Counted from the stretch's first letter, positions 12,139 to 32,251 are shown. The stretch: DNA of 38,274 nucleotides from Treponema sp. (GCA_016282835.1 JAEELR010000063.1:1-38274); one strand, 5' to 3'. Numbers and translations are program-made. Notes: generated by a model from the sequence alone, not told the origin.

Positions 12139-13254
12139 ATGGACAGTTATGGATTGATTATAAAAAATGCCAGAGAAGAAAAAAATCTTACTTTAGAGCA
12201 AGTTGCTGCTGAAACATTAATAAAGAAACAATATCTTGAAGCGATAGAAGAAGAGAATGACAGTGAGTTTCCAAGTGAAGCATATTTTTTAGGCTTTGTC
12301 AGAAACTATTGTAAATATCTGGAAGTTGACGGCGATAACATAGTTCATCTTTATACAGCAAAAAAAATTCAGGAAGCTCCTCCACCAGTTGAACTGCTTG
12401 CAAAGAAAAAGAGCGTGTGGGTGATTGCGACAATAATTACTGCTGCAGTTTTATTTGTTGTTGGAATTGCATGCTTCTTGATTTTCTTTGTATTTAAAGT
12501 TCCGCAGAAAATTAAGCAGAGTAAAGAAGCGCTTGTTGAGCAGAAAAAAATCCATCAGTATACCTTCACTGGAAAAAGTGAGACAAAGCGTTTGTATAAG
12601 GGCGACCAGATTTTTATTCCTGCAAGTGACGGCACCGGTAAAATAATCCTTACTGTTGAAAGCACTCTGGAAAAGTTCAAAATTCAAACTCCTTCGGGAA
12701 CACAGATTATTGAGCTTAGCGAAGAACGTGATTTCGATATTGACGGCGATTTAAAGAGCGACATTATTTTCTATGTAAGTGACATCAGCAACAAGAACGA
12801 AGACTTTGGTGCAGAAGTTAGAATCATAGGAAAGAATTCCTCTGCTGAAGAAGAAATTGCCATAGAGTCTGAATTGGTTGAGGACGAGCAGATTCCTCTG
12901 GTTCAGAACTTAATTACTATGAAAGATTCAATTACAGTAATTCACGAAGACTACAGGGCTTATCCGTTTACAATCCGCGCAATATTCAGAAGCCCATGTT
13001 TGTTCAGGTATAAGATTGATTTCCAGGATCCAATTGAAGAATACTTTAGGACTGGCGAAACTCTTACCATAAATGCAAACAACGGATTCCGCTTGTGGAT
13101 GAGTAATGCCAATGCCGTTAAGCTTCAGGTGATTGCTGCAAATAAAACTTACGACTTAGATGTTTCTAAAGCTGGTCTTGTTAAGGTTGAAGATATCAAG
13201 TGGATTCGAGACCCTGACAAGAAGTATAAACTGGTGGTAAGTGAAATTGACTAA
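12139..13254 (+). CDS. RodZ-like HTH membrane protein
   Basis: A 371-residue protein with an N-terminal helix-turn-helix of the RodZ type (residues about 3-70: LIIKNAREEKNLTLEQVAAE, ..FPSEAYFLGFVRNY), a single membrane segment at about 93-119, and a beta-rich C-terminal domain with a DUF4115-like end (FRYKIDFQDP.., ANNGFRLWMSNANAVKLQV). RodZ links MreB filaments to the cell-wall machinery; in spirochaetes a shape role is likely but unproven. In RodZ the HTH binds MreB instead of DNA. The gene lies nine bases after the lolA-like gene and overlaps rimO by 14 bases. Confidence 0.82.
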   Translation: MDSYGLIIKNAREEKNLTLEQVAAETLIKKQYLEAIEEENDSEFPSEAYFLGFVRNYCKYLEVDGDNIVHLYTAKKIQEAPPPVELLAKKKSVWVIATIITAAVLFVVGIACFLIFFVFKVPQKIKQSKEALVEQKKIHQYTFTGKSETKRLYKGDQIFIPASDGTGKIILTVESTLEKFKIQTPSGTQIIELSEERDFDIDGDLKSDIIFYVSDISNKNEDFGAEVRIIGKNSSAEEEIAIESELVEDEQIPLVQNLITMKDSITVIHEDYRAYPFTIRAIFRSPCLFRYKIDFQDPIEEYFRTGETLTINANNGFRLWMSNANAVKLQVIAANKTYDLDVSKAGLVKVEDIKWIRDPDKKYKLVVSEID

Positions 13255-14719
13255 ATCTCTTAAAGGAAAAAAGTTTTTTTTAGATTCGCATGGCTGTGCA
13301 AAAAATCAGGTTGACTCTGAATTAATTATTTCTAAACTCGAACAGATGGGAATGCTCCTTTGCGACACTGCAGAGGATGCCGATTTGATTTTTATAAATT
13401 CGTGCGGATTTATTGAAAGTGCAAAGAAAGAAAGTCTGGATTCCTTAATGGATGCAAGAAATGCTTTCCCTGACAAGAAAATTATTCTGGGCGGCTGTCT
13501 TGCTGAAAGGTATTCAAAAGTTTTTGAAAAAGAACTTCCGGAAGCAGATGGAATTTTTGGCAACGGAGATCTCGATAAAGTTAATGAAGTTGTAGAAGAT
13601 GTTTTTTCTGACAAAAGAAGCGTTGTAGTTCCTTTGCAGGAAGGTGTCTGCTGCGGTACAAGAAATCATTCCCTTTCGTTTCCAGGTTCATCATTTGTAA
13701 AAGTAACTGAAGGCTGCAATAACTGCTGTACATTCTGTGCAATTCCATTAATCCGCGGAAAACTTCGCTCACGAAAAATTTCTGAAATCACTGATGAAAT
13801 AAAACTGCTTGTATCTTCGGGCGTTAAGGAAATAAATTTAATCGGTCAGGATTTAGCTGCTTACGGTTGCGGTGAAAAAGATGATGTTACAGGAAAGGGC
13901 ATAAATTATTACAATGAACTTTATGTTGGTGCAAAGCAGATTGTCCTTGAAGATAAATTTTTTGACGGCGTAAAAATTCATTCTCCTTTATATGAACTGT
14001 GTAAGGCGATTTCTTTAATTGAAGGTGATTTCTGGATTCGACTGCTTTACATTCATCCGGATCATTTTAATTCTGATGTCCTGCAGCTTATGAAAAACGA
14101 TAAACGCTTTTTGCCTTACTTTGACATTCCGTTTCAGTCAGGCGATGACTCTATAATTAAAGCGATGAATCGAAAAGGCTCGTTTGCTTCCTATAAAAAA
14201 GTTGTAGAAACTATCCGCTCCAGTTTCCCGGAGAGCTGTATCCGCACTACATTGCTGGCAGGGTTCCCAGGTGAGAGCGATGAAAATGCTAAGAATACGC
14301 TAGAGTTTGTAAAGCAGATAAAACCAGACTGGGCAGGCTGTTTTGACTACAGCAAGGAAGAAGATACTCCTGCCGCTTTGATGAAGAATCAGGTGAAGTC
14401 TAAGGTAAAGCTTGAGAGAAAACAAAAGCTCGAAGAAACTCAAATTCCTATTACAGAAGAAAGCTTAAGAAAGCGTGTCGGAAAGGTATATAAAGTTTTA
14501 GTTGAAGAAATAATTAAAAATGAAAGCGGAAGTGATGAAGGGCTTGCGTTGGGCCGTGCATGGTTTGAAGCGCCTGAAGTAGACGGAAGCTTTGTAATCC
14601 GCTATGACTTAGATGATGAGAGGGCTGTAAAAATGGTAACTCCAGGTTCTTTTGTAAACGTAAAAGCTCTTGCTTCATCTGGAGTAGATCTTGACGGAGA
14701 GTTGATTGTAAGTGAGTGA
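13241..14719 (+). CDS. rimO: Ribosomal protein S12 methylthiotransferase
   Basis: A radical-SAM enzyme that adds a methylthio group to the conserved aspartate of ribosomal protein S12. The N-terminal [4Fe-4S] cysteines are Cys19, Cys55 and Cys86 (SHGCAKN, INSCGF, GGCLAER). The radical-SAM CxxxCxxC is Cys159, Cys163 and Cys166. The C-terminal end is the TRAM domain. At 492 residues it is longer than usual; the extra is mainly an insertion after GQDLAAYG (residues about 211-247) before PLYELCKAI. The start is GTG 13241 inside the end of the rodZ-like gene, with GGTGG just upstream. Its own end overlaps pcrA by eight bases. Confidence 0.93.
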   Translation: MKLTKSLKGKKFFLDSHGCAKNQVDSELIISKLEQMGMLLCDTAEDADLIFINSCGFIESAKKESLDSLMDARNAFPDKKIILGGCLAERYSKVFEKELPEADGIFGNGDLDKVNEVVEDVFSDKRSVVVPLQEGVCCGTRNHSLSFPGSSFVKVTEGCNNCCTFCAIPLIRGKLRSRKISEITDEIKLLVSSGVKEINLIGQDLAAYGCGEKDDVTGKGINYYNELYVGAKQIVLEDKFFDGVKIHSPLYELCKAISLIEGDFWIRLLYIHPDHFNSDVLQLMKNDKRFLPYFDIPFQSGDDSIIKAMNRKGSFASYKKVVETIRSSFPESCIRTTLLAGFPGESDENAKNTLEFVKQIKPDWAGCFDYSKEEDTPAALMKNQVKSKVKLERKQKLEETQIPITEESLRKRVGKVYKVLVEEIIKNESGSDEGLALGRAWFEAPEVDGSFVIRYDLDDERAVKMVTPGSFVNVKALASSGVDLDGELIVSE

Positions 14720-16973
14720 ACTTGAATATCTTTCGGTTTTAAACGATGAACAAAAAGCCGCTGTAGTTCACTCTGGTTCTTCTCTTTTAATTTTAGCAGG
14801 CGCTGGCTCTGGAAAGACGCGTGTTATTACTACAAAAATTGCATACCTGATTCAACAGAAAAATATTAGTCCGTATAAAATCCTTGCAGTGACATTCACT
14901 AAAAAAGCTGCTCAGGAAATGAAAGAGCGTGCAGTTAAAATTGAACAGAACGCACAGTACTGCCAGATAAGGACCTTCCACTCTTTCGGCTCATATTTTT
15001 TGAGGCGGTATTACGCTGCTGCAAATGTAGATAAAAATTTTACCGTTTATGATGATGATGACACTGTAACTTTAATTTTAAAAGCAAATCCTTCTATTAC
15101 AAAAAAGCAGGCAACACACTATGCGCATTTAATTTCTTTAGCGAAAGATTATTGCCTTCTGCCGGATGACCCGCTGTTAGATTCTATTTCTTCTGAATCG
15201 TTTTTCAGGACCGTGTATGAGCAGTATGAAAACCGCCTTCGGGAAACTGGGAATGTGGATTTTGGCGATTTAATCCTTCTGCCGTATTTGGTTTTGAGGG
15301 ACAACGAGAATATCCGCAAATCTGTTCACAATCAGTTTAAAGTGATTATGGTCGATGAGTATCAGGATTCAAACGTTGCTCAGTTTAAGCTTCTGGAATT
15401 GCTTTCAGGCGTAAAGGAAAACTCCGGCACTTATGTTTGCGTTGTTGGTGATGACGACCAGAGTATCTATAAATTCCGTGGTGCTGAAGTACAGAATATC
15501 CTGAACTTCCAGAATATGTTTCCGAATACAGATGTAATAAAGCTCGAAAAAAATTATCGCTCAACACAGGAAATTCTTTCGTGCGCGCAATATGTTGTAG
15601 AAAACAATAAAGGCAGATTAGGAAAGAATTTAATTTCTGCGAGAGGAAAAGGTAAAACGCCTGCCCTTGTTTTTCTACAGACACAGGACGATGAAACAGA
15701 ATTTTGTGCTGACATAATTTTGCAGTCTGCTAAGAAAGGAATTCCTTTCAGTGACTGGGCAATTTTGTACAGGACCAATGCACAGTCGCTCGGGTTTGAA
15801 ACTGAGTTCATGCACAAAAAAATTCCGTACCAGGTTGTAGGTGCTTTAAAGTTTTACGACAGGGAAGAAGTTAAAGATATAATTTCCTGGTTGAGTTTTA
15901 TTGTAAATCCTAAAGATGAAATTTCTTTTAGAAGAATTGCAAATAAGCCTGCCCGCGGTTTAGGTGAAAAAAGTCAGGATAAAATTGTTGAAGCAGGTTT
16001 AGGGAAGTCTCTTTTAGATCAATGTAAAAATATTTCGTTTTCAAAAAAAGCAAAGGAAGCAACAGAAGAATTTGTAAAGCTTGCAGAAAGTTTTATTTCT
16101 CTGCTCCCGGACTTAATGGAAGATGAGAAGAAAAAGTCGCTCGTAGAAAGTGCGCTGCTGGACGAAAATGCTGAAGAAGAAATAGAAACTCCGGCAGAAA
16201 CAGAAGCTGATGAAACAGAGAAGGAAAATTCATCGTATAGAAATTTAAGTGATTATATAAAAGCGATTGTAAAAGACAGCGGCCTGTATGAGTACTATAA
16301 AGAAAAGGATGAATTATTTTTAACTCAAAAAGTTTTGAACCTTGATGAATTAATTAACAGTGCATCTTCATTCAGTTATTCAAGAGAAGGGCTTTTAGAT
16401 TTTTTGGATCATGTGAATCTCGACAGGACTTTAGAAACTGAAGAAAACTCTTCTACAGATAAAGTTACTTTGATAACGCTTCACAATACAAAAGGCCTTG
16501 AGTTTAAGCGTGTAATCATTACAGGAATGGAAAGCGGTATTTTCCCCCGAGACGGTAAAGATGAAGCTGATATGGAAGAAGAAAGACGCTTGTTCTATGT
16601 TGGAATTACTCGTGCAATGAATGAACTTTATTTTACTTCCTGCGCTACAAGAAAACTGTATGGCCATATAAATTATACAAATCCAAGTTTGTTCTTAAAC
16701 GAGCTTGATTCAAAATGCCTTAGAGTATTGGGCGATGTTCCTGAAGGATTTACTCTTGTAAAGCAGCCGAAACAAAAACAGGCAAAAGCTTCTCTTTCAG
16801 AAAAATACTGTAAGGGTGCACAGGTTTACCATGATGACTGGGGCTACGGTCAGATTATTTCTGCAAAAGTTTCAGACGAAGGCGAATATACTGTAAAGGT
16901 TGCATTTGAAACTGGCGGTATAAAAACTTTTATGCCTGAGTATCAGTCTCATTCACTTTTGGTTATTGAATAA
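14712..16973 (+). CDS. pcrA: UvrD/PcrA-type superfamily 1 helicase
   Basis: A 753-residue 3'-5' DNA helicase for repair and replication. Motifs in order: Q motif LNDEQKAAV, Walker A AGAGSGKT (29-36), Ia AVTFTKKAAQEM, II VDEYQDSN, III GDDDQSIYKFRGA, IV EKNYRST, V TLHNTKGLEFKRVI, VI EERRLFYVGITRA. The C-terminus (YHDDWGYGQIISAKVSD..) is the Tudor-like fold of PcrA, which favours PcrA over Rep. An acidic insertion lies at about residues 485-505. The start is GTG 14712, overlapping rimO. Its last 11 bases overlap the convergent EAL gene. Confidence 0.92.
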   Translation: MSELEYLSVLNDEQKAAVVHSGSSLLILAGAGSGKTRVITTKIAYLIQQKNISPYKILAVTFTKKAAQEMKERAVKIEQNAQYCQIRTFHSFGSYFLRRYYAAANVDKNFTVYDDDDTVTLILKANPSITKKQATHYAHLISLAKDYCLLPDDPLLDSISSESFFRTVYEQYENRLRETGNVDFGDLILLPYLVLRDNENIRKSVHNQFKVIMVDEYQDSNVAQFKLLELLSGVKENSGTYVCVVGDDDQSIYKFRGAEVQNILNFQNMFPNTDVIKLEKNYRSTQEILSCAQYVVENNKGRLGKNLISARGKGKTPALVFLQTQDDETEFCADIILQSAKKGIPFSDWAILYRTNAQSLGFETEFMHKKIPYQVVGALKFYDREEVKDIISWLSFIVNPKDEISFRRIANKPARGLGEKSQDKIVEAGLGKSLLDQCKNISFSKKAKEATEEFVKLAESFISLLPDLMEDEKKKSLVESALLDENAEEEIETPAETEADETEKENSSYRNLSDYIKAIVKDSGLYEYYKEKDELFLTQKVLNLDELINSASSFSYSREGLLDFLDHVNLDRTLETEENSSTDKVTLITLHNTKGLEFKRVIITGMESGIFPRDGKDEADMEEERRLFYVGITRAMNELYFTSCATRKLYGHINYTNPSLFLNELDSKCLRVLGDVPEGFTLVKQPKQKQAKASLSEKYCKGAQVYHDDWGYGQIISAKVSDEGEYTVKVAFETGGIKTFMPEYQSHSLLVIE

Positions 16974-23447: not shown

Positions 23448-23801
23448 TTACAAATTATCCTTTTTTACTTTATCCAATGATTTATTCAGAGATAGTCTGA
23501 TTTGTTCAATAATTTCTTCCGTTATTTGAGCGCGGATTTTTTCATTCTCGGGGGTATCTTCTATTATAATAGGTGTTTTATCTTGCGGGATAAAAAGCTG
23601 GTAGACTTCGATTTTAAGAGCAGAGGCAATTTTTGAAAGAGAGTCTTCGCCTGGCCAGCGTCTTTTTCCTTCGAAAAAATTTATTGCTTGTACAGACATT
23701 TCTGCTTCTTCAGCAAGTTTTTCTTGTGTCCATCCTTTTCCTTTTCTGAAATTCTTTATGTTAGTTGATAAAGTTTCTAATATTTCTGCTCCTGATTCCA
23801 T
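23448..23801 (-). CDS. XRE-family regulator, probable restriction-modification controller
   Basis: A 117-residue protein with an XRE helix-turn-helix at residues about 13-66 (NFRKGKGWTQEKLAEEAEMS, VQAINFFEGKRRWPGEDSL, IASALKI). A charged helical tail, residues 85-117, could mediate dimers. It is divergent from the methyltransferase-like gene, the usual place for a controller of a restriction system. Three TACA-N3-TGTA boxes lie between them, one just before its own ATG, which suggests autorepression. No clear ribosome site precedes the ATG. Confidence 0.82.
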   Translation of the reverse strand: MESGAEILETLSTNIKNFRKGKGWTQEKLAEEAEMSVQAINFFEGKRRWPGEDSLSKIASALKIEVYQLFIPQDKTPIIIEDTPENEKIRAQITEEIIEQIRLSLNKSLDKVKKDNL

Positions 23802-23804
23802 ATC

Positions 23805-23876
23805 TACATTCTGTAAGGAAATTTTTTAATTATACAGTTACAGGGTGTAGAAATTGTGATATACTTACATTCTGTA
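23805..23876. promoter_or_regulatory. Operator region with three TACA-N3-TGTA boxes
   Basis: Palindromic 11-mers: TACATTCTGTA at 23805-23815, TACAGGGTGTA at 23839-23849, TACATTCTGTA at 23866-23876. On the minus strand TATAAT (23829-23834) is a fair -10 for the XRE gene, with the middle box just upstream of it. The third box lies in the likely promoter of the plus-strand gene. The XRE protein at 23448 is the obvious candidate to bind them. Confidence 0.65.
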
Positions 23877-23914
23877 GAATTTGTATATTCTATGACAAAT
23901 TGTAGGTATTATAA

Positions 23915-24856
23915 GTGAAAAGCGAACAAAAACTACGAAACGAAAATACATCATTCCCATTCACCGCAGATGTGCTTTCTATACTTCTTGTTGACCGTAC
24001 TACAAATAAAAACATTCTTTGGGCGATAGATGATTATGCTCAAATTGATTCAAAATCACAAATTCTACTTTCTCAAATAACAGGTTCTCATTCAGATCGC
24101 ATAAAACCTCGTATTCAAAAGCAAAAAGAAGAACAGCAGAGCCGTACACGCAATAAGGCTGAAGTGTTTACACCAAGCTGGATTTGCAACGCACAGAACA
24201 ACTTGATTGATGAAGCCTGGTTCGCTCGTAAAGATGTATTCAACACGATAGAAGAAAATTCTGCTGGCAAAAAATGGATTTCGACAAAAGATAAAATCGA
24301 ATTTTCTAAAGACATAGAAAGTCATAAAACCTGGCAGGACTATGTAAAACTTACCCGCTTAGAAATAACCTGCGGAGAAGCTCCATATCTTGTAAGCCGT
24401 TATGACACTGTAACAGGTAAAAGTATAAAACTCCTTGACCGCATCGGACTGCTCGATAGAAAAATGCGTGTAATCTGTGAAAACGCTGCAAATGAAGCAG
24501 AATACTTTTTATGGACTACACTTGCATTTCAAAATATATACGGTTTTGAACTACAGGGCGACAACCTTCTCTTAGCACGAACAAACCTTCTTCTTTCTTT
24601 TAATGAATATACAAAACATTTTCTTAAGCGATATCCAACAGAAGAAGAGCAGAAAAGAATTGCAGAAATTATCAGCTGGAATTTATGGCAGATGGATGGG
24701 CTTACTTTTTCTACACCCTTTTCATCTGGAGATGACAGTGAACAGGGCTTTCTTTTTGAAGAGATGAATGTAAAAGAAAACTTCCCCTGCAAAATCATGG
24801 ACTGGAAAGAAAACAAAATCATTACATATAAAACCTTGGTAAAGAAAAGGAATTGA
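23915..24856 (+). CDS. Methyltransferase-like subunit of a restriction system, no NPPY
   Basis: A 313-residue protein resembling the SAM-binding half of N6-adenine methyltransferases. AEVFTPSWICNAQNNLID matches the region before motif I. RLEITCGEAPYLVSRYD is a motif I-like segment, and NIYGFELQGDNLLLARTNLL fits motifs II/III. The catalytic (N/D)PP(Y/F) motif is absent from the whole protein, so by itself it should not methylate. Similar small 'subunit M' genes typically precede a helicase-methyltransferase gene like the one here. It may be a specificity, SAM-binding or assembly subunit (inference). The start is GTG 23915 after AGG; its promoter carries an operator box. Confidence 0.78.
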   Translation: MKSEQKLRNENTSFPFTADVLSILLVDRTTNKNILWAIDDYAQIDSKSQILLSQITGSHSDRIKPRIQKQKEEQQSRTRNKAEVFTPSWICNAQNNLIDEAWFARKDVFNTIEENSAGKKWISTKDKIEFSKDIESHKTWQDYVKLTRLEITCGEAPYLVSRYDTVTGKSIKLLDRIGLLDRKMRVICENAANEAEYFLWTTLAFQNIYGFELQGDNLLLARTNLLLSFNEYTKHFLKRYPTEEEQKRIAEIISWNLWQMDGLTFSTPFSSGDDSEQGFLFEEMNVKENFPCKIMDWKENKIITYKTLVKKRN

Positions 24857-24858
24857 AA

Positions 24859-24932
24859 ACCGTTCGGTGGTGGAGCCTGTCGAAAACATAATGGAAAAAA
24901 TGATCATTTCGACAGACTCAATGACCGTCCGT
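24859..24932. repeat. Dispersed hairpin repeat inside the restriction operon
   Basis: A 74-base imperfect hairpin: GGTGGAGCCTGTCGAAA on the left, TTTCGACAGACTCAATGACC on the right. It is a member of the GGTGGTTGAG..TCGAAA family also found near 33980. It lies between the two main genes and could set their relative expression by processing or attenuation. Confidence 0.75.
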
Positions 24933-24954
24933 GAATAGTTTTAGGAGGTGCGTA

Positions 24955-27900
24955 ATGGCTGATTCAGCAGAAAAGAGTTTCAAGAATACATTTTCTTACA
25001 AGCTCATTTATGTTTTCGCAATTGCAGATGATGCGCACGCTGGTAGCGTTAAAATCGGTGACACAAAACTTGATACTGACTTAACTCAAGACCGATTGCA
25101 GCCTAACTGTAAAGAATTGAATCAGGCTGCACGCGAACGAATTGATACTTATACTAAAACTGCTGCTGTAAGCGTTACTCTTCTTCACACCGAACTTGCA
25201 ATCAGAACAATTCAGAAAAAGGACGGCAGCTGGAACACAGAAAGTTTCCGTGATTACGATGTACACAGAGTTCTTTTGAATTCTGGAATTAAGAAGAAAA
25301 CTTTTGGTGAGCAAAAACTTGGAAAGGAATGGTTCTGCTGTGATGATACTACTGCAATAAAAGCAATTACGGCTGTTAAACACGGAGACGCTGCAATCGA
25401 CACACTTATTCCTATGGATAAGTTCATTCCAATCAATTTCCGCCCTGAGCAAAAAGAAGCAATTGAGAAAACTGTAAAGCAGTTTAAAAAGTCTCCACGA
25501 ATGCTGTGGAATGCTAAAATGCGTTTTGGTAAAACACTGTCAGCTCTCGAAGTTGTGCGCCGAATGAATTTTGAACGAACAGTTTTAATCACACATCGCC
25601 CTGTTGTTGATGATGGCTGGCATGAAGACTTTGGAAAGATTTTTACAAAAGAAGATAAATACAGATATGGTTCTAAAAAATCTGGAATCGAAATCAGTGA
25701 CCTTGAAAAAACATTCAAAAGAGATAAAAAGCATTATATTTATTTTGCTTCAATTCAGGATTTGCGCGGATCAAAAATAGTCGGCGGTAAGTTCGACAAA
25801 AATGATGATGTGTTTAACATCGACTGGGACTGTGTAATCATTGATGAAGCTCACGAAGGAACAACAACAGAACTAGGCGATAAGGTCAAAAGCATTTTAT
25901 TCAAACCAGAAAAAGGAACAAAACTCCTGGAACTTTCGGGCACTCCATTCAATATTCTTTCAAGTTACGAAGATGATGATGACAGCGTGTTCACCTGGGA
26001 TTATGTGATGGAACAGCGGGCAAAGCAGGAATGGGAAGAAACACATTTTGGAGATTCAAATCCATATTCAGATTTGCCTGAAATGCGGATGTATACTTAT
26101 GATTTGGGAAAACTCATAAAAGGAGATTTTGTTGATGTTGGCGAAAAGGCGTTTAATTTTGCTGAGTTTTTCCGCACAGACGATAATGGAAATTTTGTAC
26201 ACGAAAAAAATGTGAATGATTTTTTTAATCTTCTTACAAAGCAGGATAAAGAAAGTCTTTATCCATTCAGCTGCAATGAATATATAAATCTTTTTCACCA
26301 TACATTGTGGATGGTACCTGGCGTAAAAGAAGCTTTAGCGTTACAGCATTTATTGGAAAGGCATCCTGTTTTCTGTAATTTTAGCATTGTAAATGTTGCA
26401 GGTGACGGCGACCCTGAAGACCCTACAGGAGAAGCTCTTGAAGCCGTTAGAAAAGAAATCAAAAATGCTGGGGAAGACGGTTATACAATCACATTAAGCT
26501 GCGGAAAACTTACAACCGGCGTAAGTGTAAAACAGTGGACTGCTGTCTTTATGCTTTATGGAACTTATTCAACAAAAGCAGCCGGATATTTGCAGACAAT
26601 CTTCCGGGTGCAGACACCTTGCAACGATTACGGTAAAACTAAAACCTGTGCTTATGTTTTTGATTTTGCACCGGATAGAACGCTTAAAATGGTTGCAGAT
26701 GCTGTGACACTTAATGCAAAAGTCGGAAAGACAAAGATAGATGACAGGAACCGTCTTGGAGAGTTCTTAAACTTCTGTCCTGTAATTGGAATTGAAGGCA
26801 GTACGATGAAGCCTTACAAAGTGAACAGTCTTCTCCAGCAGTTGAAGTCTTCTTATGCAGAACGTGCTGTTACAAAAGGCTTTGATGATTCAAGCATTTA
26901 CAATGATGAACTTCTAAAACTTTCAAAAGTTGAACTGGAAAAATTCAGTGCATTACAGGCAATCATCGGACAGACAAAAGCAAATAAGGCAGGCGATAAA
27001 ATTGATGTAAACAAACAGGGGCTTACAGAAGAAGAGTACGAAGAACTCTCCAAACCAAAACAACAAAAAGAAAAACGTGAATTAAGTCCAGAACAACAGG
27101 CTCTGCTTGAAAAAGAAAAGGAAGCAAAAAAGCAGCGACAGACTGCAATAAGTATTCTTCGAGGAATCTCAATCCGTATGCCGCTTTTGATTTATGGAGC
27201 ACGTGGAAAGAACGGAGACGAAATTCCTATTACAGAAGACATCACGCTTAAAAGATTTGTTGAGCTTGTAGACGATTCTTCATGGGAAGAATTTATGCTG
27301 CGAGGTGTTACAAAAGAAAACTTCGCTGACTTTGAAAAATACTACGATGAAGATGTTTTCATTGCTGCAGGAAAACGAATCCGAAATCTTGTTCTGGCAG
27401 CAGATAAATTAAATGTAACTGAGCGTACAAGAAAGATAGCAGAAATCTTTTCATATTTCAGAAACCCTGATAAAGAAACTGTTTTGACTCCTTGGCGAGT
27501 GGTAAATATGCACATGGGTGATTGTCTTGGCGGGTGGTCTTTCTTTGATAAAGATTATGAAAAAACATTAGGTGAAAACGAGACTCCTCATTTTATAGAC
27601 GTTAAAGATGTTTCTGAAAAAATACTCGGCAACAGTGAAGCAAAGATACTGGAAATTAATTCTAAGACAGGACTTTATCCTCTTTACTGTGCTTATTCGA
27701 TTTTCAGGGCAAAGCAGAGTCTGCATCCGCAAATGGCTGAAACTGCACTTTGGGAAGAAACAATCCGCGAGAGCATTTTTGTAATCTGCAAAACGCCGAT
27801 GGCAAAATCAATTACTCAAAGAACACTCTGCGGTTTTACGAATACAAAAATAAACGCACACGCTTTCGATCATTTAATAAATGATTTAAAGAATAAAAGT

Positions 27901-28986
27901 GATTCATTTATAAAAGACGTGACATCAGAAAACTTCTGGAAAAAAGGAAATGGAAAAATGGAATTTGACGCAATCGTAGGAAATCCTCCGTATCAGGAAA
28001 TGGATGGAGGTGCACAGGCAAGTGCAAACCCAATCTATAATAAATTTGTAATCACTGCTGAAAAAACAAAACCAAATTTTGTTTCTATGATTATGCCGTC
28101 AAGATGGTACGCAGGTGGAAAAGGTCTTGATGAGTTTAGGGATAAAATGCTGAATGATATACATCTGCAAGTTCTACATGACTTTTTGAATCCCGATGAA
28201 CTGTTCCCGAACACAAACATTCGTGGCGGGCTTTGCTACTTTTTGTGGAATAAGAATTATGACAACTCAAAGGATTTGACGCATGTAATTACTCATTCTG
28301 GGAAGAAGATTATTTCCGATTCAATGAGAGCAATGAAAACTGAAGGAGCAGAAATTTTCATCCGAAATATCGAAGCAATTTCAATTATCAAAAAAGTTTC
28401 AGAAATAACAACTGAGAGTTTTGAAAGTCATGTTTCATCTCGAAAACCATTTGGATTGGATACAACTTTTGCAAAAAGCTCCGATTTTAAATCTTCAAAA
28501 AATGGATTGAAAGAACCTGTTGAATGTTATGGAAAAGGTTGGAAAATGGGTTATCTCGAAAAATTTCTTGTAAAACAGAACTCCGAATGGATTGATGATT
28601 GGAAGGTCTTTACAGCAAGAGCTAATAATATTGGAACTGAACTGAATGATGATAATCTGGTTACAAAACTTGGTAAACCGAAATTGATTTGCACAGAATC
28701 ATATTTGCTACTCGGTACTGGATTAAAACTCACCGAATCATCCGCAAAAAATCTTTGCAAATATTTTACAACAAAATTTGCAAGATTCATGCACAGCCTT
28801 GCAAAGGCAAGCCAGGATGCAACAGCCAAAACATATAAATTTGTTCCTCTTCAAGACTTTACGGAAAACAGCGATATCGACTGGAGTAAATCAATTCCAG
28901 AAATCGACAAGCAACTCTACAAGAAGTACGGTCTTTCACAAGATGAAATCGATTTTATTGAAAAGATGATTAAACCAATGGAGTAA
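24955..28986 (+). CDS. GIY-YIG-like / SF2 helicase / N6-adenine methyltransferase fusion
   Basis: A 1343-residue restriction-modification protein. Residues about 14-145 fit a T5orf172 GIY-YIG-like nuclease (KLIYVFAIA.., VKIGDTKLD, GKEWFC). Residues about 160-650 are a superfamily 2 translocase: RPEQKEAI, Walker A AKMRFGKT, IIDEAHEG, LELSGTPFN, CGKLTTGVSV, IFRVQTP. From about 890 there is a methyltransferase: ILEINSKTGLYPLY (motif I, near 900) and NPPYQ (1010-1014), then a likely target-recognition part. ATG 24955 follows AGGAGG, giving MADSAEKS; the frame is open upstream to 24931. It likely reads, translocates, modifies and cuts DNA, together with its neighbours. Confidence 0.85.
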   Translation: MADSAEKSFKNTFSYKLIYVFAIADDAHAGSVKIGDTKLDTDLTQDRLQPNCKELNQAARERIDTYTKTAAVSVTLLHTELAIRTIQKKDGSWNTESFRDYDVHRVLLNSGIKKKTFGEQKLGKEWFCCDDTTAIKAITAVKHGDAAIDTLIPMDKFIPINFRPEQKEAIEKTVKQFKKSPRMLWNAKMRFGKTLSALEVVRRMNFERTVLITHRPVVDDGWHEDFGKIFTKEDKYRYGSKKSGIEISDLEKTFKRDKKHYIYFASIQDLRGSKIVGGKFDKNDDVFNIDWDCVIIDEAHEGTTTELGDKVKSILFKPEKGTKLLELSGTPFNILSSYEDDDDSVFTWDYVMEQRAKQEWEETHFGDSNPYSDLPEMRMYTYDLGKLIKGDFVDVGEKAFNFAEFFRTDDNGNFVHEKNVNDFFNLLTKQDKESLYPFSCNEYINLFHHTLWMVPGVKEALALQHLLERHPVFCNFSIVNVAGDGDPEDPTGEALEAVRKEIKNAGEDGYTITLSCGKLTTGVSVKQWTAVFMLYGTYSTKAAGYLQTIFRVQTPCNDYGKTKTCAYVFDFAPDRTLKMVADAVTLNAKVGKTKIDDRNRLGEFLNFCPVIGIEGSTMKPYKVNSLLQQLKSSYAERAVTKGFDDSSIYNDELLKLSKVELEKFSALQAIIGQTKANKAGDKIDVNKQGLTEEEYEELSKPKQQKEKRELSPEQQALLEKEKEAKKQRQTAISILRGISIRMPLLIYGARGKNGDEIPITEDITLKRFVELVDDSSWEEFMLRGVTKENFADFEKYYDEDVFIAAGKRIRNLVLAADKLNVTERTRKIAEIFSYFRNPDKETVLTPWRVVNMHMGDCLGGWSFFDKDYEKTLGENETPHFIDVKDVSEKILGNSEAKILEINSKTGLYPLYCAYSIFRAKQSLHPQMAETALWEETIRESIFVICKTPMAKSITQRTLCGFTNTKINAHAFDHLINDLKNKSDSFIKDVTSENFWKKGNGKMEFDAIVGNPPYQEMDGGAQASANPIYNKFVITAEKTKPNFVSMIMPSRWYAGGKGLDEFRDKMLNDIHLQVLHDFLNPDELFPNTNIRGGLCYFLWNKNYDNSKDLTHVITHSGKKIISDSMRAMKTEGAEIFIRNIEAISIIKKVSEITTESFESHVSSRKPFGLDTTFAKSSDFKSSKNGLKEPVECYGKGWKMGYLEKFLVKQNSEWIDDWKVFTARANNIGTELNDDNLVTKLGKPKLICTESYLLLGTGLKLTESSAKNLCKYFTTKFARFMHSLAKASQDATAKTYKFVPLQDFTENSDIDWSKSIPEIDKQLYKKYGLSQDEIDFIEKMIKPME

Positions 28987-29014
28987 ATTATTATACTAAA
29001 AATTTAGATTGAAA

Positions 29015-29506
29015 ATGGAAAAAAAAGAAATAAATGACAATGAAATCTTCTCTCTTGTAAAGCAAGCCTTGCAACAACTATACGAAAAAGACTCTCACCT
29101 CATTCAAATCAATGCCTCGGAACGGGCGATCGTCGCAAAGTTTTCCTGCTATTTTGCTCATCTTCCAGATGCTAAAATAATAACAGATAAATACGATGTA
29201 GATGTTGAATATAATCGCTACAAAACCGCCGTAAAAAAGTTGTCAACAGGTTCCGTCACCATTGATTTTATTGTTCATAAACGAGGCAAATCAGACAATT
29301 TAATAGCCATTGAATTTAAGACTTTATGGAATGAGACTGAAGAAGGAAGAAAAAATGATGAAGATAGAATTCAAGAATTATGCACTAGCGAAAACTATAA
29401 CTACAAATACGGCTTTACAATAGTGTTAGGTAAAGATTTAGAAACCACTGTTGCCAAATTTTACAACAAATTAACAAACGAATTCCAGTCGCGGACTGTG
29501 GTATAA
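29015..29506 (+). CDS. PD-(D/E)XK-like protein of the restriction locus
   Basis: A 163-residue protein. A helix carrying SERAIVAKFSCYF, then SVTIDFIVH, a turn and LIAIEFKTLW give the order E-..-D-..-ExK of the PD-(D/E)XK nuclease fold. The spacing from Asp to Glu is about 16 residues, as usual. Small proteins of this type occur beside restriction and other defence genes, and may be a second nuclease or a DNA-end-recognition partner. I use ATG 29015 rather than the upstream TTG 29009. No strong ribosome site is present, so it may be weakly translated from the operon. Function is inferred from the motif and the neighbours. Confidence 0.65.
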   Translation: MEKKEINDNEIFSLVKQALQQLYEKDSHLIQINASERAIVAKFSCYFAHLPDAKIITDKYDVDVEYNRYKTAVKKLSTGSVTIDFIVHKRGKSDNLIAIEFKTLWNETEEGRKNDEDRIQELCTSENYNYKYGFTIVLGKDLETTVAKFYNKLTNEFQSRTVV

Positions 29507-29719: not shown

Positions 29720-30403
29720 TTAAAAATCAAATTTTCTCTGAAATGAATCATTTTTAGAATGTCCTTTTGATGTTTCTGTTTGATAAGTTTTTATCTTTAT
29801 TTTACGATGTTCACATTCAGCTTTTAAGCTTTCAGACAGATTTCCATAACACAGAATAGTTTCAGGAACTAAAACTTCCAGCATTTTATAAAAGCCTTTT
29901 TCAAAATAGTATGTGTTATCATTATCTCTATAACCGCCTTGTACACCGACAGCAACTACTCCCCATTTATCAATGCCATTAAATGCAAATTCATAAGTAC
30001 GTTCATCTCCCCAACGTACATTGGGAATGATTGAAATTCCATTTTGCATCAGAAAGTTTCCAACAGCTCGACTTTTATAAATCTGAAATATTTGCTGTGC
30101 TAGAGCCATGTTTCTGTAAACACTGTAGTCAGGTAAAATTATGCTTTGATATCTTTTAAATGTTTTCAGCTTCTTTGTAAGTTTTGTTTCGCTTGAAAGA
30201 CAACTAATGAAGTTTTCATCTAACTGATAAAAATGTACGGCTTTATTTTTAGTTTCAGTTTCTTTTTCGCAATTTGAAAAGAGAACCAGGCTTTCTGGAA
30301 TTTTTGAAGTTCCGTGTATAACAGGAATTTCATATTTTCCAGAAACTTCTGTTCCTTTTATTTGCCAGAAACCGAATACATCTTTTACAGGTTTCTTGGC
30401 CAT
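29720..30403 (-). CDS. DUF4417-like protein
   Basis: A 227-residue cytoplasmic protein. LPDYSVYRNMALAQQIFQIYKSR (read in part), IPNVRWGDERTYEFAFNGI and VAVGVQGGYRD match the DUF4417 family known mostly from phages and mobile elements; its role is unknown. It is the last gene of a minus-strand trio. The upstream start lies nine bases after the putative immunity gene. The ending is basic and hydrophilic (KGHSKNDSFQRKFDF). Confidence 0.75.
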   Translation of the reverse strand: MAKKPVKDVFGFWQIKGTEVSGKYEIPVIHGTSKIPESLVLFSNCEKETETKNKAVHFYQLDENFISCLSSETKLTKKLKTFKRYQSIILPDYSVYRNMALAQQIFQIYKSRAVGNFLMQNGISIIPNVRWGDERTYEFAFNGIDKWGVVAVGVQGGYRDNDNTYYFEKGFYKMLEVLVPETILCYGNLSESLKAECEHRKIKIKTYQTETSKGHSKNDSFQRKFDF

Positions 30404-31248: not shown

Positions 31249-31887
31249 TTAATATTCATTTATAACCTCTGAAAGAGTTTTGTTAATGGAAATTGTTGAA
31301 TAATCAATATATTTATGGTCATGAGCATTTTGTAATGCAGTATATGCTGCAGAACTTGTTACACCACAGTCAATCATAACATCTTTTACTGTAAAACCTT
31401 TGATACAATCAGGTTCAATTAATAAATAATTACCTACAACTTCAGCTTGCCATTCTGGATCAACCGAATGTAATTTTGCATCTGAATAATGCATAATATT
31501 TTCCCAGTCTTCAAGATATGGAATCCCTAATAACTTGAACAAAAAATAGTGTGCTATTTCATGAGCTATCGTAGAACGTGCTCTACCATTTTCATATCTT
31601 GCTTTGTTATAAACATCAAAACGGATATAAATACAGTTTTCTTCAGGTGAATAAAAAGCTTCATTTGGCATATTAATTTGCCCCGCTTCAAATACTCTAT
31701 ATTGAAAACTAGAATCAATTTTGGGAATAACTATTTCAAGACAATGTAAAACATCTACAAATAACTGATTTTTATCAATCCCAAGTGTTTTACGAATTTG
31801 CCTTGCAATTTGTTTTAAGTTCTTTCTAGATTGAGGTTTTGTGATTTGAACTTTTAACTGATTTTCGTTCTCAACTTGAAAGACCAT
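31249..31887 (-). CDS. ImmA/IrrE-family metallopeptidase
   Basis: A 212-residue protein with the zinc-binding HExxH in TIAHEIAHYFLF (His109, Glu110, His113) and the downstream helical region of the ImmA/IrrE family. ImmA of ICEBs1 cleaves the repressor ImmR to release mobile-element genes; others regulate stress responses or act in toxin-antitoxin pairs. The neighbouring XRE gene ends seven bases before this start, so its product is the likely cleavage target. The N-terminal 45 residues are basic and do not match the core family. Confidence 0.85.
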   Translation of the reverse strand: MVFQVENENQLKVQITKPQSRKNLKQIARQIRKTLGIDKNQLFVDVLHCLEIVIPKIDSSFQYRVFEAGQINMPNEAFYSPEENCIYIRFDVYNKARYENGRARSTIAHEIAHYFLFKLLGIPYLEDWENIMHYSDAKLHSVDPEWQAEVVGNYLLIEPDCIKGFTVKDVMIDCGVTSSAAYTALQNAHDHKYIDYSTISINKTLSEVINEY

Positions 31888-31894
31888 TTTTACC

Positions 31895-32251
31895 TCATTT
31901 TTTCAAACTCGCATATAATTTCTTTAATTCTTGAACATTCATATTTTTTATTTGCCGAGCAAATAAAACTGTAGCTTCTATTTGTTCTGATGAAGCATGT
32001 TCTAAATTTATTGTCAAAGCTTGATTTGTATCTGCTTCTGCTTTTAATAATTTCTCAGAGTCTTCTTCTGAAAGATTATATATGTTTATTATCTTTGATG
32101 TTAAATCAACAGGAATGCTTCTTGCTCCTGTTTCAATAGATGATAAATATGCAGCTGAAAGGCCAAGTTTATCTGCCATAGTTCCTAATAATTCTGATAA
32201 ATCCAGCCTTATGTGCCTTAAGACTTTTCCATATTCTGTTATTACCCCCAT
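31895..32251 (-). CDS. XRE-family repressor paired with ImmA
   Basis: A 118-residue protein with an N-terminal HTH (YGKVLRHIRLDLSELLGTMA, DKLGLSAAYLSSIETGAR) and a helical C-terminal part ending in VQELKKLYASLKK. By the ImmR model it would repress target promoters until cleaved by the partner peptidase. GAGAGG precedes the ATG. A good promoter and a TTTCAC/GTGAAA inverted repeat lie just upstream, so autorepression is likely. Confidence 0.85.
   Translation of the reverse strand: MGVITEYGKVLRHIRLDLSELLGTMADKLGLSAAYLSSIETGARSIPVDLTSKIINIYNLSEEDSEKLLKAEADTNQALTINLEHASSEQIEATVLFARQIKNMNVQELKKLYASLKK

What the first reader, a model, noticed from the sequence alone, without database searches (positions are those of the whole stretch)
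23448..29506. Restriction locus with two methyltransferase-like parts and two nuclease-like parts
The 313-residue subunit has SAM-fold motifs but no NPPY. The 1343-residue partner has its own motif I-like segment and NPPY next to a GIY-YIG-like domain and a helicase. A PD-(D/E)XK-like protein follows. The job of the NPPY-less subunit and the division of labour between the two nuclease folds are unclear, and this does not fit type I, ISP or standard type II cleanly.
Basis: partly seen in the sequence, partly recalled or inferred. Interest (0 to 1): 0.68.

Follow-up and report, generated by a model that had tools for sequence, protein, structure and literature searches.

The report
Restriction system with a split methyltransferase
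This bacterial anti-phage locus makes its DNA-marking enzyme as two halves from two genes, and the half that reads the DNA and does the chemistry is fused to the DNA-cutting motor, which may explain how such systems change targets easily by swapping that half.

Summary
The NPPY-less 313-aa subunit (M) is the SAM-binding half of a split gamma-class adenine methyltransferase. The other half (MT: NPPY plus target recognition) is the C-terminus of the 1343-aa protein, behind a GIY-YIG nuclease, a helicase and a degenerate methyltransferase N-half (HALF). Evidence: stand-alone MT genes begin at motif IV; M and MT occur as natural fusions beside a separate nuclease-helicase; one fusion folds as a complete methyltransferase (pLDDT 92.7; CamA, Z 19); two phages keep only M+MT. 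M accompanies 76 of 80 homologous nuclease-helicase genes; the other four start at contig ends. SAM motifs are conserved in M and broken in HALF. The PD-(D/E)XK gene is only a neighbour (no homolog in 80 loci). Databases hold both proteins as generic 'type II/IIG' families, and a 2015 paper mentions split methyltransferases without details; I found no published mechanism. Most novel untested reading: M and HALF compete for one MT half, so modification and restriction are two states of it. Verdict: new variant of a known kind.

The parts
23448..23801 (-). XRE-family regulator, divergent from M (probable controller; not universal)
   Evidence: Pfam HTH_3 7.3e-11; related HTH found upstream of M in about 11 of 96 loci by a crude two-round search; near-palindromic TTACATTCTGTAGAA-type repeats in the 23799-23914 gap (sequence)
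23915..24856 (+). M: SAM-binding half (motifs X, I, II, III) of the split N6-adenine methyltransferase, GTG start
   Evidence: PADLOC PDLC03390 2.9e-107 over residues 18-312; motif conservation in 112 homologs; natural M-MT fusions
24158..24175 (+). M motif X, AEVFTP
   Evidence: T-P 99-100% in 112 sequences
24359..24391 (+). M motif I, LEITCGEAPYL
   Evidence: E, C, G, E, P invariant in 112; compare LEPACAHGPFL of M.TaqI and LEPACGTGNFL of cousin M'
24539..24565 (+). M motif II, YGFELQGDN (acidic residue for SAM ribose)
   Evidence: E 90% / D 9%
24689..24703 (+). M motif III, QMDGL
   Evidence: D 100%
24862..24931 (+). dispersed intergenic repeat lying between M and the large gene (not a component)
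   Evidence: seven further partial copies of 24-33 nt elsewhere in the same genome
24955..28986 (+). R-HALF-MT: 1343-aa GIY-YIG / helicase / degenerate MTase N-half / catalytic MTase C-half
25006..25410 (+). GIY-YIG nuclease domain (T5orf172/MUG113 type)
   Evidence: close homolog L029 T5orf172 22.5 bits against cut-off 20; L120 MUG113 2.9e-6; Tyr, KxG, Arg invariant and Glu 98% in 80 sequences
25432..26760 (+). SF2 helicase/translocase (ResIII), C-terminal limit approximate
   Evidence: Pfam ResIII 7.6e-16; RFGKT and DEAHEG motifs
27157..27957 (+). HALF: degenerate MTase N-half (TPWRVV, LEINSKTGLYPLY, ICKTPMAK)
   Evidence: Lys 100% in motif I, no acidic residue in motif II in 68 homologs; folds as the N-half of a gamma MTase with MT
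27958..28983 (+). MT: catalytic and target-recognition half, starts at motif IV; GNPPY at 27979-27993
   Evidence: 60% identical to a stand-alone phage PTm1 subunit beginning MKFDIIVGNPPY; Eco57I 5.3e-31

Best explanation
This is an ATP-dependent restriction-modification system with a methyltransferase split at motif IV. M carries the SAM-binding half (motifs X-I-II-III) and lacks the catalytic motif. The C-terminal third of the large protein (MT) carries NPPY and the target-recognition domain and lacks a working SAM site. M docks onto MT to make an active N6-adenine methyltransferase that marks the host's sites (structure and gene organisation shown computationally; activity inferred). The rest of the large protein is the restriction machine: an SF2 translocase carrying a GIY-YIG nuclease, told where to act by the same MT half (inferred). 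Between helicase and MT sits HALF, a second N-half that keeps the fold but has lost the SAM motifs. Its absence together with the nuclease-helicase in phage-borne M+MT enzymes suggests that it couples recognition to restriction and is not needed for methylation (inferred). The module boundary at motif IV lets MT halves be exchanged while M and R stay constant, changing target specificity.
For: (1) M ends just before motif IV; stand-alone MT proteins start at it: MKFDFCIGNPPY (L004), MKFDFAIGNPPY (L025), MKFDIIVGNPPY (phage PTm1). (2) Natural in-frame fusions M-MT: L118 (663 aa) and L120 (671 aa), each beside a separate GIY-helicase-HALF protein without NPPY, and Fusobacterium phage FNU4. (3) In L118 one Pfam Eco57I match (1.2e-14) spans the junction, residues 201-387 with GNPPY at 320, while a stand-alone MT starts only at profile position 71. 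(4) AlphaFold of the L118 fusion: pLDDT 92.7, pTM 0.90; CamA Z 19.1 over model 61-647, M.BseCI 70-651, M.TaqI 82-625. (5) Complementary decay: M keeps motifs X, I, II, III in 112 sequences, HALF has Lys in motif I and no acid in motif II in 68. In the cousin three-gene system M' has textbook RFLEPACGTGNFL and YGVEILKDN but no NPPY, and its partner has FLDPVCKSGVFL plus NPPY. (6) M beside R in 76 of 80 loci, the other four at contig ends; all 7 Bacteroidota genomes with M also carry R-MT on the same contig. (7) PTm1 and FNU4 hold M and MT; no R is found in the records, and the HALF-MT match begins at or just before MT. (8) Distance correlations M-R 0.77, M-MT 0.11, R-MT 0.15; closest relative L028 is 89% identical in R but 25-35% in MT.
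Against: HALF-MT of the window's own protein also folds confidently as a complete methyltransferase (pLDDT 91.3, CamA Z 21.0), so M would have to displace HALF or bind otherwise; no complex could be modelled. M's motif I (GEAP) is itself unusual. M and HALF profiles do not align significantly. Adenine as the target is inferred from NPPY and fold only. No activity has been shown for any member in the papers found.
Confidence: 0.8

Rival explanations
1. HALF-MT is a complete methyltransferase on its own with an unorthodox SAM site, and M is an accessory or pseudo-enzyme partner (a METTL3/METTL14-like or M1/M2-like heterodimer).
For: HALF-MT folds as a full gamma MTase in cis; HALF motifs, although non-canonical, are very conserved (SKxG, KTPMAK); in cousin systems HALF-MT is one separate 505-aa protein.
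Against: Motif I first Gly is Lys and the motif II acid is missing in all 68 HALFs; phages PTm1 and FNU4 have MT with M but no HALF, so M must be the N-half there; M-MT fusions put M in the N-half position.
Confidence: 0.15
2. An ordinary type IIG or ISP-like single-chain enzyme; M is a second, independent methyltransferase for the other strand, as in Eco57I-type systems with extra MTases.
For: PADLOC labels the large protein REase_MTase_IIG and M as MTase_II; type IIG enzymes often have accompanying MTases (PMC3874165).
Against: M has no catalytic motif IV and no target-recognition domain of its own; it is found fused directly before motif IV of MT.
Confidence: 0.04
3. The PD-(D/E)XK protein P0003 is a third, functional nuclease subunit of this system.
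For: It lies 22 bp downstream on the same strand; PD-Lambda-3_A similarity 1.2e-12.
Against: No homolog in 80 homologous loci, none in 117 other genomes of the genus, and absent beside the 89%-identical relative L028.
Confidence: 0.04

Closest known systems
Cousin three-gene systems (Bacteroidota L144, L145; spirochaete-phylum L016): M' + HALF-MT + GIY-helicase
   Same: Same modules; M' with SAM motifs and no NPPY, HALF-MT with NPPY and a KSG motif I, GIY-YIG helicase of about 835 aa
   Different: HALF-MT is a separate protein, R lacks it, and M' is shorter (229-257 aa) with textbook motif I
Type ISP enzymes LlaGI / LlaBIII
   Same: Order nuclease - helicase - gamma MTase - recognition domain in one chain; HALF-MT and M-MT models align with the MTase and recognition parts (Z about 16.5-17)
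   Different: GIY-YIG instead of a PD-(D/E)XK nuclease; the MTase N-half in the chain has lost SAM motifs and a separate M is conserved
CamA, M.BseCI, M.TaqI, BrxX/PglX (gamma-class N6-adenine MTases)
   Same: Fold and motif order X-I-II-III-IV-recognition domain, reproduced by the M-MT fusion
   Different: Those are single chains; here the chain is cut at motif IV and the C-half sits on the restriction protein
'New class of split DNA methyltransferases' (R. J. Roberts, personal communication, cited in PMC4335053)
   Same: Described as two or three subunits needed for full activity
   Different: No sequences, split point or gene organisation are given in the passage read, so identity with this family cannot be decided
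AquI / EcoHK31I split m5C methyltransferases (own knowledge)
   Same: Naturally split DNA MTase
   Different: Cytosine-5 class, split elsewhere, not fused to a helicase-nuclease
Invertible hsdS of type I systems (PMC7394358, listed)
   Same: Specificity module exchanged while the rest stays constant; inverted repeats and a recombinase gene at relative L101, repeats at L113
   Different: The exchanged part is the catalytic half of the methyltransferase, with the repeat inside motif IV codons

Membership tests
Gamma-class N6-adenine DNA methyltransferase | Fold with motif order X-I-II-III-IV then recognition domain | tested here: met
   Natural M-MT fusion model, pLDDT 92.7, CamA Z 19.1 over 61-647, M.TaqI 82-625
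Gamma-class N6-adenine DNA methyltransferase | Intact SAM motifs and NPPY in the same chain | tested here: not met
   In the window SAM motifs are in M, NPPY in the 1343-aa protein; HALF motif I/II degenerate in 68 of 68. Met in the natural fusions L118, L120, L023
Gamma-class N6-adenine DNA methyltransferase | Methylates adenine N6 | not testable with these tools
   Needs methylome or assay
GIY-YIG nuclease superfamily (T5orf172/MUG113) | Profile match and conserved Tyr, (K/Y)xG, Arg, Glu | tested here: met
   Homologs above the Pfam cut-off; Y, KxG, R 100%, E 98% in 80 sequences. P0002 itself has no Pfam match for this domain
Type I R-M | Separate HsdS and HsdM with NPPY | tested here: not met
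   No specificity gene beside it; M lacks NPPY
Type ISP R-M | One self-sufficient chain with nuclease, helicase, intact MTase, recognition domain | tested here: not met
   HALF lacks SAM motifs; separate M beside 76 of 80
Type ISP R-M | Mrr-like PD-(D/E)XK nuclease | tested here: not met
   The N-terminus is GIY-YIG in homologs
Type IIG | Single nuclease-MTase chain, no ATP-dependent helicase | tested here: not met
   ResIII helicase 7.6e-16
Type III R-M | Mod with complete MTase; Res with helicase and PD-(D/E)XK | tested here: not met
   MTase split and its C-half fused to R; nuclease GIY-YIG
PADLOC MTase_II (PDLC03390) and REase_MTase_IIG (PDLC03626) | Profile match | tested here: met
   2.9e-107 over residues 18-312 of M; 7.4e-112 for the large protein in three stretches
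Roberts 'split DNA methyltransferases' | Two or three subunits needed for full activity | tested here: inconclusive
   Only a short description without sequences found
PD-Lambda-3 (for P0003) | Profile match of the A component | tested here: met
   1.2e-12; other features of that system not tested

The most novel reading that the evidence does not exclude
One catalytic/recognition half (MT) is shared by two mutually exclusive N-halves. With M it becomes a working methyltransferase; with HALF, which cannot bind SAM normally, it becomes a dead reader that licenses the helicase and GIY-YIG nuclease. Modification and restriction would then be two conformational states of one half-enzyme, and specificity could change by swapping MT at motif IV (by inversion in some relatives), with both activities changing together.
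Probability: 0.35. Interest if true: 0.85.

Novelty: new variant of a known kind. Interest (0 to 1): 0.62.

Why it matters
It gives a role to a widespread but unexplained gene (annotated only 'restriction endonuclease subunit M'), shows a natural split of an adenine methyltransferase at motif IV, and explains why annotating such loci as stand-alone type II or IIG enzymes misleads: cloning the large gene alone would likely give no methylation. The constant-M, variable-MT layout is a natural platform for changing target sequence, and predicts phase-variable specificity in some Bacteroidota. If the two-N-half model holds, it would be a new way to couple modification and restriction.

Tried and rejected
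PDB sequence searches with P0001, P0002 and profiles A1, A5, A6 gave no meaningful match. The M/HALF profile comparison aligned only around motif X and was not significant, so M is not shown to be a recent copy of HALF. A search for close relatives of the FNU4 fusion in viral contigs found none. NCBIfam has no family for these proteins. Prevotella intermedia Pin17FIII (PMC5608340) was considered as a characterised member: a 1117-aa enzyme with an inverted 306-aa neighbour and a separate helicase; its sequence could not be compared, and GGYGAB methylation by the single protein argues against the same architecture. P0003 as a subunit was rejected. Some phage records with M have no MT match, but many are fragments.

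Full report
What is there. The window carries, in order, a divergent XRE regulator (23448-23801, minus strand), a 313-aa gene M (23915-24856), a 1343-aa gene (ATG 24955 to 28986) and a 165-aa PD-(D/E)XK-like gene (29009-29506). All frames are open. Pfam finds ResIII (7.6e-16) and Eco57I (5.3e-31) in the large protein and nothing convincing in M; NCBIfam has no family for either. PADLOC knows both as generic restriction families: M matches PDLC03390 'MTase_II' at 2.9e-107 over nearly its whole length, the large protein PDLC03626 'REase_MTase_IIG' at 7.4e-112. The host appears to be a Treponema-like spirochaete: the nearest relative of the large protein is in a Treponema genome (89% identity, L028).

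M is the first half of a methyltransferase. Aligned M proteins share motif X (FTP), motif I (LEITCGEAPY), motif II (YGFExQGD) and motif III (QMDGL), and end shortly before where motif IV would come. The same positions in 112 homologs are close to invariant: motif X T-P 99-100%, motif I E, C, G, E, P 100%, motif II acid 99%, motif III D 100%. For comparison M.TaqI reads LEPACAHGPFL, VGVEIDP, ADFL, GNPPY in the same order (sequence confirmed). Conversely, when the catalytic part is a separate gene it starts exactly at motif IV: MKFDFCIGNPPY in L004 (a genome of the window's own genus), MKFDFAIGNPPY in L025, MKFDIIVGNPPY in Tenacibaculum phage PTm1. So the stand-alone MT has no SAM motif at all.

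Natural fusions. Three loci carry M and MT as one reading frame joined at this point: Fusobacterium phage FNU4 (L023) and the IMG/VR contigs L118 and L120. In L118 and L120 the GIY-YIG/helicase protein is a separate gene without NPPY. A single Pfam Eco57I match spans the junction in L118 (residues 201-387; GNPPY at 320), whereas a stand-alone MT matches only from profile position 71. AlphaFold models the L118 fusion as one compact enzyme (mean pLDDT 92.7, pTM 0.90). Foldseek and VIA-align match it across both halves to CamA (Z 19.1, 415 residues, rmsd 5.0, model 61-647), MmeI, LlaGI, BrxX, M.BseCI and M.TaqI. The alignment held M-only and MT-only rows with just two full-length rows, so the packing of M on MT rests on little paired-sequence signal; it is a model, not a measurement.

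A second, degenerate N-half. In 68 homologs this HALF keeps motif X but has Lys where the first Gly of GxG belongs (100%), and Cys or Ala in place of the motif II acid. It is present whether or not MT is on the same chain: R proteins without MT (L019, L118, L120) still end in HALF. With MT it folds as a complete gamma-class MTase (window residues, pLDDT 91.3, pTM 0.89; CamA Z 21.0). The two N-halves therefore appear to offer the same MT half two different partners. M and HALF are not detectably close in sequence.

Cousins show the same complementary decay. In 345 Bacteroidota genomes, M was found in 7 and R-like proteins in 27; all 7 with M have the R-MT protein on the same contig, adjacent in most but with other genes between in two. 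Many of the others are shorter GIY-helicases (about 835 aa). Two with enough flank (L144, L145) sit beside a 498-505-aa HALF-MT protein and a 229-257-aa M'. M' has textbook motifs (GEVFT, RFLEPACGTGNFL, YGVEILKDN, NILWGDAL; MmeI_Mtase above its cut-off in L144) and no NPPY; HALF-MT has FLDPVCKSGVFL, YGIAITE and NPPY. M and M' are related (the M profile hits M' at 3e-17 and 4e-14).

Which part is for restriction. Phages PTm1 (224,680 bp) and FNU4 (44,440 bp) carry M and MT. A search of the whole records found no R, and the HALF-MT profile matched only from its position 286 or 257 onwards, that is at or just before MT. The same R profile found many hits elsewhere, so it works. That HALF and R are missing together suggests, but does not prove, that HALF serves restriction and is not needed for methylation.

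The nuclease. The N-terminal domain of the window's protein has no Pfam match of its own, but close homologs pass the T5orf172 and MUG113 cut-offs, and the signature residues are preserved in 80 sequences: Tyr 100%, KxG 100%, Arg 100%, Glu 98%. The PD-(D/E)XK gene P0003 is not part of the system: no homolog in any of the 80 loci and none in 117 other genomes of the genus. Its best relative is the A component of PD-lambda-3, listed as a PD-(D/E)XK nuclease system in PMC10952713 and described as abortive infection in PMC13190303.

Is M constant? Of the 80 best R loci in GTDB genomes, 76 have M, and in the other four (L046, L053, L077, L079) R starts within 0.5 kb of a contig end. One (L101) has M on the opposite strand. 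The set is biased to close relatives of the window's R, so the fused organisation is over-represented.

Module exchange. In 76 loci, pairwise identities of M and R go together (Spearman 0.77), while MT follows neither (0.11 and 0.15). Pairs with R at 0.98 or 0.95 identity can have the start of MT at 0.24-0.36. These correlations are not corrected for phylogeny; the individual pairs make the point without them. In Capnocytophaga bilenii (L101) a silent MT half lies inverted 3.1 kb away, the 37-nt inverted repeat being the codons of IDTIIGNPPYQV, with a tyrosine recombinase gene next to it. L113 has two extra MT halves with similar repeats. This looks like phase-variable exchange of MT at motif IV.

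Literature. No paper in the library describes this composition with roles. PMC4335053 mentions, as a personal communication of R. J. Roberts, a new class of split DNA methyltransferases with two or three subunits; this family may be that class, but the passage gives no sequences. Most subscription papers and REBASE itself could not be consulted, so prior knowledge in those places is possible.

Limits. No complex could be modelled, no activity is known, and the base methylated, the target sequence and the cleavage chemistry are inferred. The claim that M and HALF compete for MT is a hypothesis consistent with the two models and the gene organisations, not a result.

Noticed in passing
L101 10935-10971 and 14055-14091 (Capnocytophaga bilenii): 37-nt inverted repeat made of the motif IV codons; a silent inverted MT half (13069-14103, minus) and a tyrosine recombinase (14109-14945) beside it: likely phase-variable exchange of the methyltransferase C-half. 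A YhcG-type nuclease gene lies between.
   Followed up: partly
L113 9937-12974 (IMGVR_UViG_2524614553_000001): Two additional MT halves downstream of R-MT, one inverted, with 33-45-nt inverted repeats at motif IV.
   Followed up: partly
L121, L122, L123, L125, L126, L127, L027: Phage contigs from IMG/VR and fecal samples carry a short M (about 246-281 aa where complete) with intact SAM motifs and no MT found in the record; it might act on a host MT half, as an anti-restriction device or a helper.
   Followed up: partly
L124, L128, L129 with L140-L142 (jumbo phage contigs): M gene lies roughly 75-170 kb away from an NPPY-containing open frame of about 1800-1930 aa that matches MT (weakly in two of three); one of them (L141) has an RFGKT helicase motif: the system seems split across jumbo phage genomes.
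   Followed up: partly
L144, L145, L016, L014: Related systems with short M' and separate HALF-MT; with a GIY-helicase of about 835 aa in L144/L145.
   Followed up: partly
window 29009-29506: Stand-alone PD-Lambda-3_A-like PD-(D/E)XK gene, with no homolog in 117 other genomes of the genus.
   Followed up: partly
window 24862-24931: Dispersed repeat with partial copies elsewhere in the genome has landed between M and the large gene; the close relative L028 has only a short gap there.
   Followed up: partly
window 31249-32251: XRE regulator next to a protein with a metalloprotease-like HEIAH motif, the usual ImmA/IrrE-like pair of mobile elements; not analysed.
   Followed up: no
window 29720-30403: DUF4417 protein (Pfam 2.5e-44) on the minus strand just downstream of the locus; not analysed.
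   Followed up: no
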